Shown: positions 40,901 to 46,844 of the stretch, piece after piece
Layout: every line of letters starts with the position of its first letter
Numbering within the stretch: position 1 is the first letter of the stretch
The notes under the pieces: generated by a model
The model's database searches: none
Told to the model about the DNA's origin: nothing
The model's input: the letters and a program-made list of their open reading frames with translations, nothing else
Origin: Bacteroidota bacterium
GTDB lineage: Bacteria; Bacteroidota; Ignavibacteria; Kryptoniales; JAKASW01
Assembly (NCBI GenBank): GCA_021789975.1
Contig: JAJYIT010000003.1
Location: forward strand, 1-64,000
Length of the DNA: 64,000 nt
Direction: 5' to 3'
Program-made: the position numbers and the translations under genes

Positions 40901-43900
40901 TTATTTCCCCTTCCACTCGGGCAACGTTCCAGGAATCCATGGTGCGCCCTCAGCCCGCATCCTACCTTCAAGATCCTTCAGATCCACCCTCACAAGCTCG
41001 CGAAGCTCTGACACCACTGAGGAAAACTCCCGGCTGGCTATTTCGTAAGAATCGACGGTGGTCTTCGGAGGAAGCGCAGTGGACATCGCTTCATTGCCTA
41101 GAATCGTCTCGATCCTTCCGCTTATGGAGATCGGTATATTCACGTTGAGCGACGCAAGGGTCTGGTTACCGCGAAGAGACAAGAGGATTGAATCAACCTT
41201 CATATTCATACTACTGACTTCCGACATGAGGCCCTCTATGTTTGTCGGCGTCTGGTTGAGGGCATCTTCGATCAGATCGAAACGCGCCTTGAGTCGGTTT
41301 GCAGTCTGGAGAGCACCGTGGATTTCGCCATAAAGCCGTGTGACCTTCTTTTGGAACGCCGCAAGTGCGGTGTGATCGGCCATTGTCATACTGTCGGCAC
41401 CGGGGACGTAGACCTCGAAGCTCTCGGGCGATGACAGATGAACAGTTCTTCCATCTACAACCTTCAAGAGCGTCACGGTGTACTTGCCCGGCATGACAAA
41501 CGGTCCATCGTTATTTCCACCGAAGCCCGTCGGTTCCTTTCGCACGACCATGCTGGGATAGGTCAAATCCCATGTTACTCGATGCGTGCCGGCAACTACC
41601 GGTCCCTCTATTCTCCTCACGACATTTCCATCTTCGTCGGTGACCATCAGCTCAATCTTCGGCTGTGATTCCATCGACTCAGCCGTAAGCTCACGGTCGG
41701 TTGGATATTGGAAAACTTTCCCGCTCTTCTCTGCCTCGGCTTCTTCCTTCTGACGGATCTCTTTCTTCGTTTTCAAAGAATGCTTCAGGTAGTACGTGAA
41801 TGTAGCACCGAACAGAGGATTAGGCGCGGTAAAATAAGATTCCCCTTGTGCACCTTTGCCGATGTCACCAAGCGGCTGAGACTGTACAAACAGCATTGCG
41901 TTCCCGACAGGAAGCAGGATGGCGTCTTCCGACAGTGCTTTTTCATCAAGCGTTCTGAGCGGAGCGTAATCGTCAAGGATATAAATTCCGCGGCCGAATG
42001 TTGCTACAGCCAGATCATTTTCTTCCTTCTGGATCGCGATATCCATAACGGCTATGGTAGGCATACTGCCTTTCAGCTGTACCCACTTCCCGCCTCCATC
42101 ATTTGAGAAGAAGAGGCCGAACTCCGTCCCGGCGAACAGCAACTCTGGATCTTTGTAATCTTCGGCGAATGCATGAACCGGGCCGTTGACCGGGAGATTC
42201 GAGCTGATCGAAGTCCACGTCTTCCCCTGATCGGTACTCTTAAGAATGTATGGCTTGAAGTCCTCATTCTTATGATTATCGAAAGTTACGTAAACTGTGT
42301 TCACGTTATGCTGAGATGCCACCACTCTACTCACGTAAGCCAGTTCCGGCACACCGGGAAACTTGTCGATCTTGCGCCACGTTTCGCCGTCGTTGTCGGT
42401 GACTTGTAACAATCCATCATCGGTGCCTGCGTACAGCAAACCGCGTTTCAGTGGTGATTCCGAGAGAGCCGTGATTGTCCCATAGAACGAGGTGGATGCA
42501 TTTTTCGCAACGGCATAAGGCCCCCAAACGCGGTCGAGGATCTTGAGCTTGTTGACATCAATGTGCCTCGTCAGATCCCCGCTTATCTCAGCCCAACTGT
42601 TGCCGCGGTCGGTGCTCTTGAAGAGTTTGTCCGCCGCGAAATAGATTGTCGTGTGGGAGAACGGGCTTATGATGAGAGGCGAATCCCATTCCCATCGAAG
42701 CGGCGCTTCGTTCTCTCCTTGTTGCGGTTGAATACCGAGAATCTGACCCGTCTTACGGTTGAATCGAACAAGACCACCGTACTGGCTCTCTGCGTAGATC
42801 GTATTCGGATCCTCGGGATCGACGCGCGATTCGAATCCGTCTCCGCCGACTGTAATAAACCAATCGGAATTTACGATGCCTGAAGCGCTTATCGTCTGCG
42901 AAGGTCCCCCCAGGGAGTTATTGTCCTGTGTACCACCATACACGTAGAAGAATGGCTTTGAGTTGTCAACTGTCACGTCGTAGAACTGTGCGATGGGAAG
43001 GTTTGATTTGAAGTTCCAATTCTTGGCCTGATCATAGCTTTCGTAAAGACCGCCGTCGCAGCCGACCAGGTAATAGTCTGGATCACGCGGGTCGACATAC
43101 ATGCAATGGCTGTCGACGTGTTTCCACTTCTCGTTCATGTGCTTCATGGTCTTCCCGCCATCATTCGAGTACATCAAAAAAGTGCCCATGAGATAGATTC
43201 TGTTGACATTTACCGGATCTGCGTAGATGGTTGCGTAGTACATAGCAGTCTCATTATAACTATTTCTCTTTTGCCACGTCTCACCATAGTCGGTGGAGCG
43301 AAAGATCCCACCCTTTCCTTCCGCAGCTTCGACTGTCGCGTACACCACACTGGGCTTGACAGGCGACACTGCCAGTCCAATCTTACCCATGTCGAGAGTC
43401 GGCAGGCCGTCAGTCAGCTTGTTCCACGTTTCTCCGGCGTCTGTCGATTTGTAGATGGCGCTCTCAGGTCCGCCGTCGATGAATCCCCAAATGTGGCGCC
43501 GTCTCTCATACGCCGAAGCATACATGACATCATGATTTGTGGGGTCCATTTCAACATCATTTACGCCGGTGTTTTGGCTTATCTTCAAAATACACTTCCA
43601 TGATTTTCCGCCGTCGGTGGTCCCATACAGTCCGCGGTCCCCACCCGGCCCCCAGAGCGGGCCTTGCGCCGCAACAAAAACAATATTCGGATTGGTCGGG
43701 TCGATTAAGATTTTCCCGATATGTTCCGATGACTTCAGCCCCATATTCGTCCAGTGTTTTCCCCCATCCAGGGTTTCATAAACTCCGTCACCATATCCCA
43801 CGCTCCGCTGACTGTTGTTCTCGCCCGTGCCGACCCAGACAACGTATGGATTCTTAGGGTCGATGGCGATTGCTCCGACGGAATAGACGGGCTCGTGTTC

Positions 43901-44194
43901 AAAAACCGGTGTCCACGACGTGCCGTCGTTCTCGGTCTCCCAGACTCCTCCGGACGCGGCGCCGACGTAAAAGTGCGCACGGTTATTCGGATCAACGGCG
44001 ATGCACGATACTCGGCCGGAGGTGACTGCCGGTCCGATGGATCTGAGTTTAATACCGCCGAAGTTGGCAGAGGTCATGAGAGAGTCTCTCGGAGACGCCG
44101 AATGGGCATCGGAAGGCAGAGGAGAAGTGAGAAGCAAGACAGTAAAAACAAGAGGCGAGAAACAAAAGAAGAGTGAGTGGAAGCGTAGTTTCAT
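40901..44194 (-). CDS. Sortilin/VPS10-like Asp-box repeat protein
   Basis: 1097 aa, exported (signal peptide LFFCFSPLVFTVLLLTSPLP). At least eight Asp-box (BNR) motifs of the S-x-D-x-G-x-T-W type occur (STDAGETWNKL, STDYGETWQKR, STDRGNSWAEI, NDGETWRKI, STDQGKTWTSI), giving one or two many-bladed propellers over residues 40-720. The remaining part has a beta-sandwich-like stretch (GNVVRRIEGPVVAGTHRVTW) and a helical end. Such proteins are common and numerous in this bacterial group; activity is unknown, and glycosidase names given to them are unproven. A hairpin follows its stop. Confidence 0.9.
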   Translation of the reverse strand: MKLRFHSLFFCFSPLVFTVLLLTSPLPSDAHSASPRDSLMTSANFGGIKLRSIGPAVTSGRVSCIAVDPNNRAHFYVGAASGGVWETENDGTSWTPVFEHEPVYSVGAIAIDPKNPYVVWVGTGENNSQRSVGYGDGVYETLDGGKHWTNMGLKSSEHIGKILIDPTNPNIVFVAAQGPLWGPGGDRGLYGTTDGGKSWKCILKISQNTGVNDVEMDPTNHDVMYASAYERRRHIWGFIDGGPESAIYKSTDAGETWNKLTDGLPTLDMGKIGLAVSPVKPSVVYATVEAAEGKGGIFRSTDYGETWQKRNSYNETAMYYATIYADPVNVNRIYLMGTFLMYSNDGGKTMKHMNEKWKHVDSHCMYVDPRDPDYYLVGCDGGLYESYDQAKNWNFKSNLPIAQFYDVTVDNSKPFFYVYGGTQDNNSLGGPSQTISASGIVNSDWFITVGGDGFESRVDPEDPNTIYAESQYGGLVRFNRKTGQILGIQPQQGENEAPLRWEWDSPLIISPFSHTTIYFAADKLFKSTDRGNSWAEISGDLTRHIDVNKLKILDRVWGPYAVAKNASTSFYGTITALSESPLKRGLLYAGTDDGLLQVTDNDGETWRKIDKFPGVPELAYVSRVVASQHNVNTVYVTFDNHKNEDFKPYILKSTDQGKTWTSISSNLPVNGPVHAFAEDYKDPELLFAGTEFGLFFSNDGGGKWVQLKGSMPTIAVMDIAIQKEENDLAVATFGRGIYILDDYAPLRTLDEKALSEDAILLPVGNAMLFVQSQPLGDIGKGAQGESYFTAPNPLFGATFTYYLKHSLKTKKEIRQKEEAEAEKSGKVFQYPTDRELTAESMESQPKIELMVTDEDGNVVRRIEGPVVAGTHRVTWDLTYPSMVVRKEPTGFGGNNDGPFVMPGKYTVTLLKVVDGRTVHLSSPESFEVYVPGADSMTMADHTALAAFQKKVTRLYGEIHGALQTANRLKARFDLIEDALNQTPTNIEGLMSEVSSMNMKVDSILLSLRGNQTLASLNVNIPISISGRIETILGNEAMSTALPPKTTVDSYEIASREFSSVVSELRELVRVDLKDLEGRMRAEGAPWIPGTLPEWKGK

Positions 44195-44344
44195 GGTTGT
44201 AATCTCCTTTGATGGTTATGGCTCGCAGGAAACCCTGGGGAGAAATATAACTGAACGCGGGAAAATGTGTAATATAGACCGAGAGTGCAATGGCCGGTCG
44301 GTCGAGGATATTTTTATGCAGGCAAGAGCCGGCATTGGGGGGAG

Positions 44345-45823
44345 TTAAACGGTGACAGCCTCCGCATTCTTCCTCGAATATTTCTCCAGATATTTCTCCC
44401 TGTGGATTGTGTTATACGAACAAAACGGAATCACCTTTAAGTCTGGAGTGACATAGTGGATGCAGCAGCGTTCGCTTCTCTCACAATCGAAATTATACGG
44501 ATCCATGAAGTGCATGCTTCCTATGAATAGCACCGAGCTGTCATGGAACTCGCTAGCCGCCTGATAACTTCCCTTGAGAATCACCGTCTTCAAGAGTGAA
44601 AGCACCTTACCGGAGTGAGTTATGGCGCCCGCACGGATTAATCTGGGAAGTTGCGTTGTAACCCTTGTGAGGACCTCTCCCTTAGAAGTGGATTTTAGAG
44701 ATGCGATCAAATCGAAAACTGCTTCCGTGTTTATCAGCCTGTTGAGAGGTACGAGCTTCTTCCCGTCTTTGAATAAATATGTCCAGGCGCCGCAAGCAGG
44801 ATGCGTGTTCAAGAACGGATACTCTCCCGTTCCGTCATTCCTTCTCAAAAGATCGAATAGCGGCGCAAAAACAGGAATAGGCAGGAAATCATCGGCAGTT
44901 ATTTGACCATCGAGCTGTTCCTCGAGCGCGGAAAAAATGTCCGGGATTGTGATCCGCTTCTTAAGCAGCTCCTCTTTTGATATCCTGCCGGTAAATGAAA
45001 CGGGTTGGAAATTTACACCGCGAACCACTTCTATATTTGCGGCGGCAAATTTGACGATGTCACCAAGCTGGCGGTCGTTGATTCCTTTTACCACAGTCGG
45101 CACAAGAACGGCGTTGGGAAGCGGGCCGTGATTCTTCAGATTCTCAACCGCCTTCAACTTCTCCGGGAGTGCGTTGAAACCTCTAAGCGCCTGATAAGGC
45201 TCTGGCGTAACTCCGTCAAACTGAAGGTAGACTGTGGTAACGTCTGCAGCGATCAACTTCTTCGGATAATCCGGGTCCCTGGCAAGCTTTCTACCGTTGG
45301 TCGCAACCTGTATATGCTGGAAGCCTTTGTCTCTGGCCATTTCCGCGATCTTGAAGAAATCCTTCCGAATTGTCGGTTCCCCACCTGAAAACTGGATCAC
45401 CCCGCAGGCAGGACTCTGACCGCGCAGTGTATCCATCATCTCGGAGATTTGAGCCAAGCTTGGATTGAAAACTTTCCGCCCCTTTGCAGTATCCGCAAAG
45501 CACGTCGGGCATTCGTAGTTACATGCATTGGTAACGTCTATGTTTGCAAGTACCGTGCTACTTTTGTGGTTCTCGCAAAGTCCGCAGTCGTACGGACAGC
45601 TCTTGTTCTTTTCCACAAGGTGGCCATCTCTGGCAGCGCCGGTGTCGTAGTTTCGCATGAACTTCCTGTACACATCGGCATCGCCATAATAGATATCTTC
45701 GAACTCACCATGGCGACTGCACTTCTTTCGGATGAAAATCTTCCGCTCATGTTCGTATAGCTCTGCCGGCACTTTCTTAAGGCAAACCGGACAAAGGGAT
45801 TCGCTAATCTTGATTATGTCCAC
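44345..45823 (-). CDS. Radical SAM enzyme of the MJ0619/tetraether-synthase (Tes) type
   Basis: 492 aa. An N-terminal zinc-ribbon-like part (C11-x2-C14, C35) and CPYDCGLCENHK (C76, C80, C83) precede the radical SAM core VTNACNYECPTCFAD (C101-x3-C105-x2-C108). VIQFSGGEPTIRKDF, VYLQFDGVTPEPYQALRG, VLVPTVVKGIND and VRGVNFQPVSFTGR follow. This architecture matches archaeal MJ0619-like proteins, now known to include the tetraether lipid synthase that joins lipid tails by C-C bonds, with bacterial relatives linked to membrane-spanning lipids. The substrate here is inferred. Upstream is a membrane protein gene. Confidence 0.85.
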   Translation of the reverse strand: MDIIKISESLCPVCLKKVPAELYEHERKIFIRKKCSRHGEFEDIYYGDADVYRKFMRNYDTGAARDGHLVEKNKSCPYDCGLCENHKSSTVLANIDVTNACNYECPTCFADTAKGRKVFNPSLAQISEMMDTLRGQSPACGVIQFSGGEPTIRKDFFKIAEMARDKGFQHIQVATNGRKLARDPDYPKKLIAADVTTVYLQFDGVTPEPYQALRGFNALPEKLKAVENLKNHGPLPNAVLVPTVVKGINDRQLGDIVKFAAANIEVVRGVNFQPVSFTGRISKEELLKKRITIPDIFSALEEQLDGQITADDFLPIPVFAPLFDLLRRNDGTGEYPFLNTHPACGAWTYLFKDGKKLVPLNRLINTEAVFDLIASLKSTSKGEVLTRVTTQLPRLIRAGAITHSGKVLSLLKTVILKGSYQAASEFHDSSVLFIGSMHFMDPYNFDCERSERCCIHYVTPDLKVIPFCSYNTIHREKYLEKYSRKNAEAVTV

Positions 45824-46013
45824 TTTATTCCCAATGGTTCTATTTAGTTAAGCACCTGCATCTCTCCAAGAAGCATCTCAACCGGCGTCATTCCCCAGTT
45901 ATCACTTGTATCGCTTCTACCTACTCTATTTTCCCCGCGACATCACAATCGGTACAACAGACCTCATCACTTCCCTGCAGGCAGCTTGAGGCAGACGCTC
46001 CGTGTTTGTAGGG

Positions 46014-46844
46014 TCAGCTTGGAACAGCTCGCGGCTCGCTCTTGATATGGTTCAGGAACTCCACCATCACCACAACACTGATTGCGGCTAATCCGACAAA
46101 TACCAAAAGTGACGTCTCGTCTACGTTTAGTCCTGAGAACCTCATGCTTACTACCATCGCTCCGATTGCAACCGCAGTCAGCATGCCGAACACCACAAAG
46201 CTGGGAGCAATCAAATATCCAATAGGGTGACGCTTCCTTAGAAGTACGGCAGCCACAAAGAAGCCAGGGAGAAAGATCGACAGGTCAAGAACGTGTACAG
46301 CGCTTGTAAATGCCCCGGCATCCTTCACGCTCTGAGGCACATCATTGTTGATCATAGCAGGTATAATTTCCTTAAGCCACTGAGCTGAGAACAAAAGGGC
46401 GATGATCCACAGGTACGCAATGACAACATTATTCGACTTCTTCTCATCGAACCAGCTCATTACGGCGTGCGAATCAGTACTTGCAAGGATGGTTGTTATC
46501 GAATAGAAAGACAAACCCAACGTGAAACAGTAGACGAGAAACAGGTCGTTGAAGTGCACACCAAAGCAGTAGATGACAAATGTATAGGCTACATACATCA
46601 TAGCCCCGAGCCAGATGAAGTAGGAGTATTTGCTCCCCTTCCTGATCAAGACCGAAGAGATAAGCAGTGTCGGTACAACGATGATCAGATCGATGACATC
46701 CTGCGCAAGTGCCTGGGCCGCGGCAAATGCGGTCTCGCGAGAATACATGCCGCTGATAAACAACCCTCCAAGGCTTGCTGCGGCGATGAGCAACGATAGA
46801 GGAACTGTGAAAAGCAAAGGCTTCTGTCGGAGGCCCGATTCCAT
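46014..46844 (-). CDS. Seven- or eight-helix membrane protein of unknown function
   Basis: 276 aa with about eight predicted membrane helices, beginning LLFTVPLSLLIAAASLGGLF and ending VFVGLAAISVVVMVEFLNHI. Conserved-looking polar features are WLGAMMYVAYTFVIYCFGVHF and HVLDLSIFLPGFFVAAVLLR. I recognise no named family. It lies 190 bases upstream of the Tes-like radical SAM gene in the same direction, so a link to membrane lipids is possible but unsupported. Confidence 0.75.
   Translation of the reverse strand: MESGLRQKPLLFTVPLSLLIAAASLGGLFISGMYSRETAFAAAQALAQDVIDLIIVVPTLLISSVLIRKGSKYSYFIWLGAMMYVAYTFVIYCFGVHFNDLFLVYCFTLGLSFYSITTILASTDSHAVMSWFDEKKSNNVVIAYLWIIALLFSAQWLKEIIPAMINNDVPQSVKDAGAFTSAVHVLDLSIFLPGFFVAAVLLRKRHPIGYLIAPSFVVFGMLTAVAIGAMVVSMRFSGLNVDETSLLVFVGLAAISVVVMVEFLNHIKSEPRAVPS

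What the first reader, a model, noticed from the sequence alone, without database searches (positions are those of the whole stretch)
44345..46844. Bacterial MJ0619/Tes-like radical SAM gene beside an unknown membrane protein
Seen: CPYDCGLC, CNYECPTC, VIQFSGGEPT, VYLQFDG and VRGVNFQPVSF match the archaeal MJ0619 architecture. Known: that family includes the tetraether lipid synthase, and bacterial homologues have been linked to membrane-spanning lipids. Inference: this organism may make tail-to-tail joined (diabolic-acid-like or tetraether) lipids, and the eight-helix protein upstream may assist.
Basis: partly seen in the sequence, partly recalled or inferred. Interest (0 to 1): 0.65.

Follow-up and report, generated by a model that had tools for sequence, protein, structure and literature searches.

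The report
Archaeal tetraether-lipid synthase in a bacterium
A bacterium related to Ignavibacterium carries an intact copy of the archaeal enzyme that welds two membrane lipids end to end, in a genome that also holds relatives of most of the other enzymes archaea use to build those lipids, so it may naturally make a membrane lipid normally taken as a signature of archaea.

Summary
Window 44345-45823 (-) encodes a protein that passes NCBI's equivalog model for archaeal tetraether synthase, Tes (582.8 bits, cut-off 450), is 48% identical to M. jannaschii Tes over its full length (TM 0.92), and keeps all published metal ligands and catalytic residues checked.

The membrane protein is not a partner: relatives occur in 11 of 13 genus genomes, and one genome has the same site without tes. 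Tes is in 1 of 13 genus genomes. Ignavibacterial copies form one clade (100/99) beside euryarchaeal Tes.

The genome also holds a GGGP synthase, a DGGGP-synthase-like UbiA protein and a geranylgeranyl reductase, found in nearly all genus members, but no G1P dehydrogenase. So the substrate may be an isoprenoid archaeol-like diether rather than diabolic acid.

My reading: tes was added to a resident archaeol-like pathway, like the E. coli strain engineered to make GDGT (PMC12042123). Activity and substrate are inferred. Bacterial Tes homologues are already known; this combination I did not find in print.

The parts
44345..45823 (-). tes: radical SAM tetraether synthase (MJ0619 / GDGT-MAS family), 492 aa, GTG start
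   Evidence: ORF; NF045702 582.8 bits vs cut-off 450; 7tol E 4.5e-150; model TM 0.92 to 7tol
45710..45793 (-). rubredoxin-type Fe site, residues C11, C14, C35, H38
   Evidence: aligned to C9/C12/C33/H36 of M. jannaschii Tes (ligands as published, PMC9433317); PF23545 zinc ribbon 59.8 bits
45566..45598 (-). N-terminal auxiliary [4Fe-4S] site, residues C76, C80, C83, H86 (CPYDCGLCENH)
   Evidence: aligned to C73/C77/C80 and to H83, which I take to be the paper's 'conserved histidine' (29 of 29 archaeal rows)
45500..45523 (-). radical SAM cluster CX3CX2C, residues C101, C105, C108
   Evidence: PF04055 81.2 bits
44420..44515 (-). C-terminal auxiliary [4Fe-4S] domain: M437 (=M439), C453 (=C455), Y457 (=Y459), C468 (=C470); C344 (=C338) lies outside this range at 44792-44794
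   Evidence: Met439 and Tyr459 published as completely conserved in 1,000 archaeal homologues (PMC9433317); the three Cys as ligands are my inference from 29 of 29 conservation
46014..46844 (-). Eight-helix membrane protein of unknown family; neighbour, not a tes partner
   Evidence: relatives in 11 of 13 genus genomes; present at the tes-less site in G300; model
40901..44194 (-). Sortilin/BNR-repeat exported protein; left flank used as synteny marker
   Evidence: PF15902; its start region aligns to G300 contig C199
47011..47622 (-). SpoU/TrmH-family RNA methyltransferase; right flank used as synteny marker
   Evidence: PF00588; 85% identical beside the membrane protein in G300

Best explanation
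The gene is a functional tetraether synthase of archaeal type, now in an Ignavibacteria-class bacterium. Using SAM-derived 5'-deoxyadenosyl radicals and its C-terminal [4Fe-4S] cluster as a holding site, it couples the terminal (omega) carbons of two saturated lipid tails (mechanism as published for MJ0619, inferred here by homology and intact residues). Its most likely substrate is an isoprenoid archaeol-like diether made by resident genes: GGGP synthase (PcrB family) adds the first geranylgeranyl chain to glycerol phosphate, a DGGGP-synthase-like UbiA enzyme adds the second, and a geranylgeranyl reductase saturates both. Tes then joins tails within or between molecules to give macrocyclic archaeol or a GDGT-like membrane-spanning lipid, possibly on a G3P backbone because no G1P dehydrogenase was found. 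Shown: the genes, their homology, Tes residues, fold, tree and the tes-less site. Inferred: expression, activity, substrate, stereochemistry and product. I put tail-to-tail coupling of some membrane lipid at about 0.8 and the isoprenoid substrate at about 0.5.
For: Tes: NF045702 582.8 vs 450; 48% identity and TM 0.92 to 7tol; Z 54.1 over 481 residues, next non-Tes Z 21.9; all listed ligands plus Y459 and M439 kept. Clade with five other ignavibacterial Tes, sister to M. jannaschii and Alkanophaga Tes. Pathway: GGGPS 141.8 bits, its nine best PDB matches all GGGP synthases (4jej E 4.8e-54). DGGGPS-like UbiA, best PDB match 6m31 DGGGP synthase E 3.1e-35, with aspartate motifs. Reductase, best PDB match 3oz2 digeranylgeranylglycerophospholipid reductase E 4.7e-72, PF22578 90.4 bits. 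The reductase and the DGGGPS-like gene are in 5 of 6 and 6 of 6 Tes-bearing class genomes tested. Precedent: adding mj0619 to an E. coli strain with GGPPS, GGGPS, DGGGPS, G1PDH, CarS and GGR yields GDGT anaerobically (PMC12042123, passages).
Against: No biochemical or lipid data. No G1PDH: the only PF13685 hit in this genome is an iron-alcohol-dehydrogenase fragment with a stop. The DGGGPS-like protein is below NCBIfam cut-offs (206.7 vs 269; 173.4 vs 296), and the reductase is below the archaeal DGGGPL-reductase equivalogs (255 vs 780; 181.3 vs 580), passing only the broad TIGR02032 model. These genes are genus-wide, so they are not specific to tes and may serve another purpose; PMC6431249 calls their role in FCB bacteria lacking G1PDH unclear. 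The five other ignavibacterial Tes lost M439, and three of them lost the N-cluster ligands, so the bacterial clade as a whole may be drifting in function. By eye, tes is not clustered with lipid genes in any of the six genomes seen (ORF lists for five; for the window). GGPP synthase was not searched.
Confidence: 0.5

Rival explanations
1. The same Tes chemistry acts on iso-branched fatty-acyl or alkyl glycerol lipids (iso-C15:0 tails, whose branched end looks like the phytanyl end), giving iso-diabolic acid esters or brGDGT-like lipids. This is.
For: Tes crystallised with E. coli phosphatidic acid in its pockets and makes no direct head-group bonds (PMC9433317). Solibacter usitatus, with Tes homologues, makes brGDGTs, and its authors propose Tes for that step (PMC10087280, passages). 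Zeng et al. propose the same for bacterial homologues (PMC8941075).
Against: The window enzyme sits beside euryarchaeal Tes and keeps the archaeal catalytic residues. No protein with two PF01869 domains, as described for Ger, was seen. The genome has its own isoprenoid lipid genes. Fatty-acid genes were not tested.
Confidence: 0.3
2. It is a Tes descendant that now performs a different radical reaction on another hydrophobic substrate (for example a menaquinone or polyprenol tail).
For: Clade-mates have lost M439 and, in three, the N-terminal cluster ligands. Bacterial homologues exist in organisms not known to make biphytanyl chains (PMC9433317).
Against: The window copy itself keeps the ligands and catalytic residues checked and has the highest Tes-model score of the six (582.5 vs 511.1 to 427.5).
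Confidence: 0.12
3. A silent or non-functional recent import, or archaeal contamination of the assembly.
For: Present in only 1 of 13 genus genomes.
Against: Intact ORF with neighbour-like GC (0.491 vs 0.481-0.523). Flanks on both sides are syntenic with a same-genus genome, and the contig is 222 kb. The long branch inside a bacterial clade argues against a very recent import from a sampled archaeon.
Confidence: 0.08

Closest known systems
Tes / GDGT-MAS, MJ0619 of Methanocaldococcus jannaschii (PDB 7tol, 7tom)
   Same: Full-length 48% identity, TM 0.92, all metal-cofactor ligands, M439 and Y459
   Different: Bacterial host; N108 and A109 replaced by D and T; stand-alone gene in a bacterial chromosome
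Bacterial Tes homologues (Acidobacteria; Black Sea Chloroflexota, Planctomycetota and others; PMC8941075, PMC11868695, PMC10087280)
   Same: Tes homologue in a bacterium, activity unconfirmed
   Different: Published identities of the two best bacterial hits to M. acetivorans Tes are 42% and 40%; this copy is 48% identical to M. jannaschii Tes; the host class is not mentioned together with 'tetraether synthase' in the library searched
Mss, bacterial membrane-spanning lipid synthase (PMC13274423, PMC11868695)
   Same: Couples lipid tails; described as sharing the catalytic architecture of Tes
   Different: No Mss sequence could be obtained here, so no comparison was made; T. maritima, which makes such lipids, gave no NF045702 match at E <= 1e-60 (control)
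TrsS-like radical SAM proteins common in Bacteroidota (NF045646)
   Same: N-terminal zinc ribbon, N cluster and radical SAM domain
   Different: 13 of 13 sampled lack C455, Y459 and C470; the window scores 375.5 against a cut-off of 490
GGGPS and DGGGPS of FCB-group bacteria (PMC7852524, PMC6431249)
   Same: Same archaeal-type lipid genes, often likewise without G1PDH
   Different: There no tetraether step was identified; here a reductase and tes are present in the same genome

Membership tests
Tetraether synthase Tes (NF045702) | Score over the curated equivalog cut-off (450 bits) | tested here: met
   582.8 bits
Tetraether synthase Tes (NF045702) | Full-length four-domain fold of 7tol | tested here: met
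   TM 0.92, 492 columns; Z 54.1, rmsd 2.1, 481 aligned
Tetraether synthase Tes (NF045702) | Rubredoxin-type Fe ligands C9, C12, C33, H36 | tested here: met
   C11, C14, C35, H38
Tetraether synthase Tes (NF045702) | N-terminal cluster ligands C73, C77, C80 and a histidine | tested here: met
   C76, C80, C83, H86; which histidine is my inference from conservation
Tetraether synthase Tes (NF045702) | Radical SAM CX3CX2C | tested here: met
   C101, C105, C108
Tetraether synthase Tes (NF045702) | C-terminal cluster: Met439, Tyr459 and conserved cysteines | tested here: met
   M437, Y457, C344, C453, C468
Tetraether synthase Tes (NF045702) | Placement within Tes rather than the TrsS-like outgroup | tested here: met
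   37 Tes rows split from 13 TrsS-like rows at 100/100; sister to M. jannaschii/Alkanophaga 99/95
Tetraether synthase Tes (NF045702) | Csp3-Csp3 coupling of lipid tails | not testable with these tools
   needs an enzyme assay
TrsS (NF045646) | Score over cut-off 490 | tested here: not met
   375.5 bits
Mss | Closer to characterised Mss than to Tes | not tested
Archaeal-type diether pathway | GGGP synthase (PF01884) | tested here: met
   141.8 bits vs 23.9; best PDB match 4jej
Archaeal-type diether pathway | DGGGP synthase | tested here: inconclusive
   best PDB match is 6m31 DGGGPS, but NCBIfam cut-offs are not reached
Archaeal-type diether pathway | Digeranylgeranylglycerophospholipid reductase | tested here: inconclusive
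   TIGR02032 245 vs 158.8 met, PF22578 met, archaeal equivalogs not reached
Archaeal-type diether pathway | G1P dehydrogenase (PF13685 proper) | tested here: not met
   one 31-bit hit, an iron-ADH fragment with a stop codon

The most novel reading that the evidence does not exclude
A bacterium naturally makes isoprenoid tetraether or macrocyclic archaeol membrane lipids, having gained the last enzyme, Tes, on top of a resident archaeol-like pathway, possibly on the bacterial G3P backbone. It would be a natural mixed archaeal/bacterial membrane and a bacterial source of GDGT, which is used as an archaeal biomarker.
Probability: 0.3. Interest if true: 0.88.

Novelty: new member of a known kind. 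Interest (0 to 1): 0.6.

Why it matters
GDGTs are read as archaeal signatures in climate proxies, and the lipid divide between archaea and bacteria is a long-standing question. PMC8941075 states that no bacteria had been shown to produce GDGTs. A bacterium carrying an intact archaeal-type Tes together with relatives of GGGPS, DGGGPS and GGR makes the question testable with one lipid extract, and its genus gives built-in controls: 12 sister genomes have no tes, and nearly all of them keep the other genes.

Tried and rejected
1. Partner role of the membrane protein: rejected. Relatives are in 11 of 13 genus genomes, of which only one has tes, and it is at the tes-less site. A fold search of its model gave no PDB match at E <= 0.001.

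2. tes inside a lipid operon: not seen. By eye, the neighbourhoods of five other ignavibacterial tes genes hold unrelated genes. In G525 the reductase lies about 10 kb from tes, among unrelated genes.

3. Archaeal contamination: rejected on synteny and composition.

4. Direction of transfer: partly supported. A constraint keeping the 30 archaeal rows as one clade gave p-AU 0.023, but after removing five long or doubtful rows (29 archaeal rows left) it gave p 0.146. The nesting beside M. jannaschii/Alkanophaga (99/95, then 98/96) therefore stands only on branch support.

5. Other Tes/Mss-like proteins in this genome: none found. 26 other radical SAM proteins were extracted, and the best match to the window Tes was E 2.3e-7 in that 26-sequence set.

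6. Correlation of tes with the other lipid genes: weak. Outside the window's order, the DGGGPS-like gene is in 5 of 5 tes-bearing vs 2 of 6 chosen tes-lacking genomes, and the reductase in 4 of 5 vs 2 of 6. Five of the six tes-lacking genomes were chosen from those with TrsS-like hits, so this is a biased sample.

Iso-fatty-acid genes were not searched.

8. VIA-align listed no family other than 7tol/7tom near the top; absence of others proves nothing.

Rows dropped: of 74 extracted proteins, the tree used 48 plus the window and M. jannaschii. I left out two truncated rows, rows identical to or judged by their identity figures redundant with kept ones, and 17 of the 24 TrsS-like rows from the phylum scan. 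The structure alignment A2 used 24 of the available Tes sequences.

Full report
OBSERVATION. The first passes NCBI's equivalog model for tetraether synthase Tes (NF045702, 582.8 bits, cut-off 450) and fails the sister model TrsS (375.5, cut-off 490). Its best PDB match is M. jannaschii Tes, also named GDGT-MAS (7tol, E 4.5e-150). An AlphaFold2 model from 24 aligned sequences (mean pLDDT 85.6, pTM 0.89) superposes on 7tol over the whole length with TM 0.92 and 48% identity, and by VIA-align with Z 54.1 over 481 residues; the next non-Tes entry has Z 21.9.

RESIDUES. The published Tes has a rubredoxin-type iron (C9, C12, C33, H36), an N-terminal [4Fe-4S] cluster (C73, C77, C80 and a histidine), the radical SAM cluster, and a C-terminal cluster with a labile Met439; Tyr459 lies at the substrate end (PMC9433317, passages). 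In a MAFFT alignment of 50 rows the window protein keeps all of these, plus G145, Q268, S271 and R275, and the cysteines 338, 455 and 470 that 29 of 29 other archaeal rows share. Two nearby residues named in the paper differ (N108 to D, A109 to T). The TrsS-like outgroup (13 rows) lacks C455, Y459 and C470 in every row. Among the five other ignavibacterial Tes, all keep Y459, C338, C455 and C470, but all five have lost M439 (D or E instead) and three have lost the N-cluster ligands. The M439A variant still worked in the published assay (PMC9433317). So the window copy is the most archaea-like of its clade.

DISTRIBUTION AND ORIGIN. In an even draw of 296 genomes of the phylum, 2 exceed the Tes cut-off. 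In 391 genomes of the class, 3 exceed it and 3 more are full-length matches at 427.5-441.6 bits. In the window's family, where all 13 genomes held are of one genus, 1 of 13 has it. Named relatives from GTDB contigs are Ignavibacteriales (47%), Alkanophaga archaea (47%), Ignavibacteriaceae and Melioribacteraceae (43% and 41%) and many archaea. The Melioribacteraceae record's contig length and identity equal those of G066, and the Ignavibacteriales and Ignavibacteriaceae proteins equal those of G525 and G405, all 'same class' as the window; so the window's class is Ignavibacteria in the broad sense. Its species name is not known to me. A 50-row tree puts the six ignavibacterial Tes in one clade (100/99), sister to M. 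jannaschii plus Alkanophaga (99/95) and apart from the TrsS-like outgroup. Removing five long or doubtful rows keeps this (100/100 and 98/96). An AU test rejected archaeal monophyly in the full set (p 0.023) but not in the reduced set (p 0.146), so transfer from archaea is likely but not proven.

SITE. In G300 of the same genus, a 3,273-base contig carries the start of the sortilin-like gene, the membrane protein (64%) and the TrmH-like gene (85%) in the same order, with no tes in the stretch between the first two (the best tblastn of Tes against that contig was E 3.7). GC of tes (0.491) is like its neighbours (0.481-0.523). This argues strongly against contamination and shows gain or loss of tes alone. 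The membrane protein is therefore not a dedicated tes accessory: relatives occur in 11 of 13 genus genomes (one only a weak fragment) and twice in this one. Two paralogues sit directly after an ECF sigma gene, a hint for another role.

LIPID GENES. In the same genome: GGGP synthase of the PcrB family (141.8 bits; full-length matches in 12 of 13 genus genomes, and a fragment in the thirteenth), whose nine best PDB matches are GGGP synthases (4jej E 4.8e-54), with heptaprenylglyceryl synthases far weaker (E 3.6e-6). A UbiA-family protein whose best PDB match is DGGGP synthase 6m31 (E 3.1e-35; M. jannaschii as its source is from my own knowledge), one of six UbiA proteins, of which the other five look like quinone-type, heme O or decaprenyl-phosphate enzymes. 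A geranylgeranyl reductase best matching a solved digeranylgeranylglycerophospholipid reductase (3oz2, E 4.7e-72), with the GGR catalytic domain. DGGGPS and GGR equivalog cut-offs are not reached, so I call them DGGGPS-like and GGR-like. Among 28 chosen genomes the reductase is in 22 (12 of 13 in the genus) and the DGGGPS-like gene in 23 (12 of 13 in the genus). No G1P dehydrogenase: 4 of 13 genus genomes have weak PF13685 hits (3 over the cut-off), and the one in this genome is an iron-alcohol-dehydrogenase fragment (read by eye from its glycine-rich motif).

MECHANISM. By homology, the 5'-deoxyadenosyl radical abstracts a hydrogen from the terminal carbon of one saturated tail, the carbon is stored on the C-terminal cluster, and a second substrate radical joins to it (published for MJ0619; PMC9433317). 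I think the tails here are most likely phytanyl-like, from the resident isoprenoid genes. The closest experimental parallel is E. coli carrying GGPPS, GGGPS, DGGGPS, G1PDH, CarS and GGR: adding mj0619 gave GDGT, with a little macrocyclic archaeol and GTGT, anaerobically (PMC12042123, passages). The missing G1PDH is shared with other FCB bacteria; for Cloacimonetes the GGGPS and DGGGPS were reported to work in E. coli, and the backbone may be G3P (PMC7852524, passages; PMC6431249, passages).

WHAT IS KNOWN. Bacterial Tes homologues are in print: 456 in bacterial genomes (PMC8941075), 281 Black Sea MAGs (PMC11868695), and S. usitatus with a Tes proposal for brGDGTs (PMC10087280). GGGPS and DGGGPS in FCB phyla are in print (PMC6431249). 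I read passages of these papers, not their supplements, and Zeng et al. did search FCB genomes, so ignavibacterial hits may be in their tables. No paper in the library searched holds both 'tetraether synthase' and a word beginning 'Ignavibacteri'. The new point is the combination in one bacterium and its within-genus contrast.

VERDICT. The identity is solid, the membrane-protein idea is not supported, and the lipid inference is plausible but should be widened from diabolic acid to isoprenoid tetraethers. Interest 0.6; novelty is a new member of a known family in an unusual genomic setting.

Noticed in passing
window 46014-46844; G000:C2 (L122:360-1991); L121:7552-9018: An unnamed eight-helix membrane protein family, in nearly every genome of the genus; two paralogues lie directly after an ECF sigma factor gene (the two sigma genes are 74% identical), which suggests a sigma-linked role.
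   Followed up: partly
L072:182-1065 versus window 44195-46013: The stretch between the sortilin-like gene and the membrane protein differs between two species of the genus: tes in one, short ORFs with an NYHNPFNP motif in the other. It may be a variable insertion spot.
   Followed up: no
L125, L126, L127 (G405, G459, G559): Three ignavibacterial Tes proteins have lost the N-terminal [4Fe-4S] ligands and Met439 but keep Tyr459 and the C-terminal cysteines: a possible natural variant of Tes without the N cluster.
   Followed up: partly
L003-L025, L128-L133: Radical SAM proteins in many genomes of the phylum; six scanned score 312-369 bits for TrsS (cut-off 490) and 272-306 for Tes. Sampled rows form their own clade without the Tes C-terminal ligands and have no named function here.
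   Followed up: partly
G000: L200, L206, L208: Three radical SAM proteins with weak matches to BchE and to hopanoid or ladderane-type lipid models, all below cut-offs; whether any is a GrsA-like ring former was not tested.
   Followed up: no
L210 and L211 (G000:C4 and C13): Two radical SAM proteins (524 and 520 aa, motif SLGCPYTCSFC) with nearly the same first 40 residues, on two short contigs, with no NCBIfam match at E <= 1e-25.
   Followed up: no
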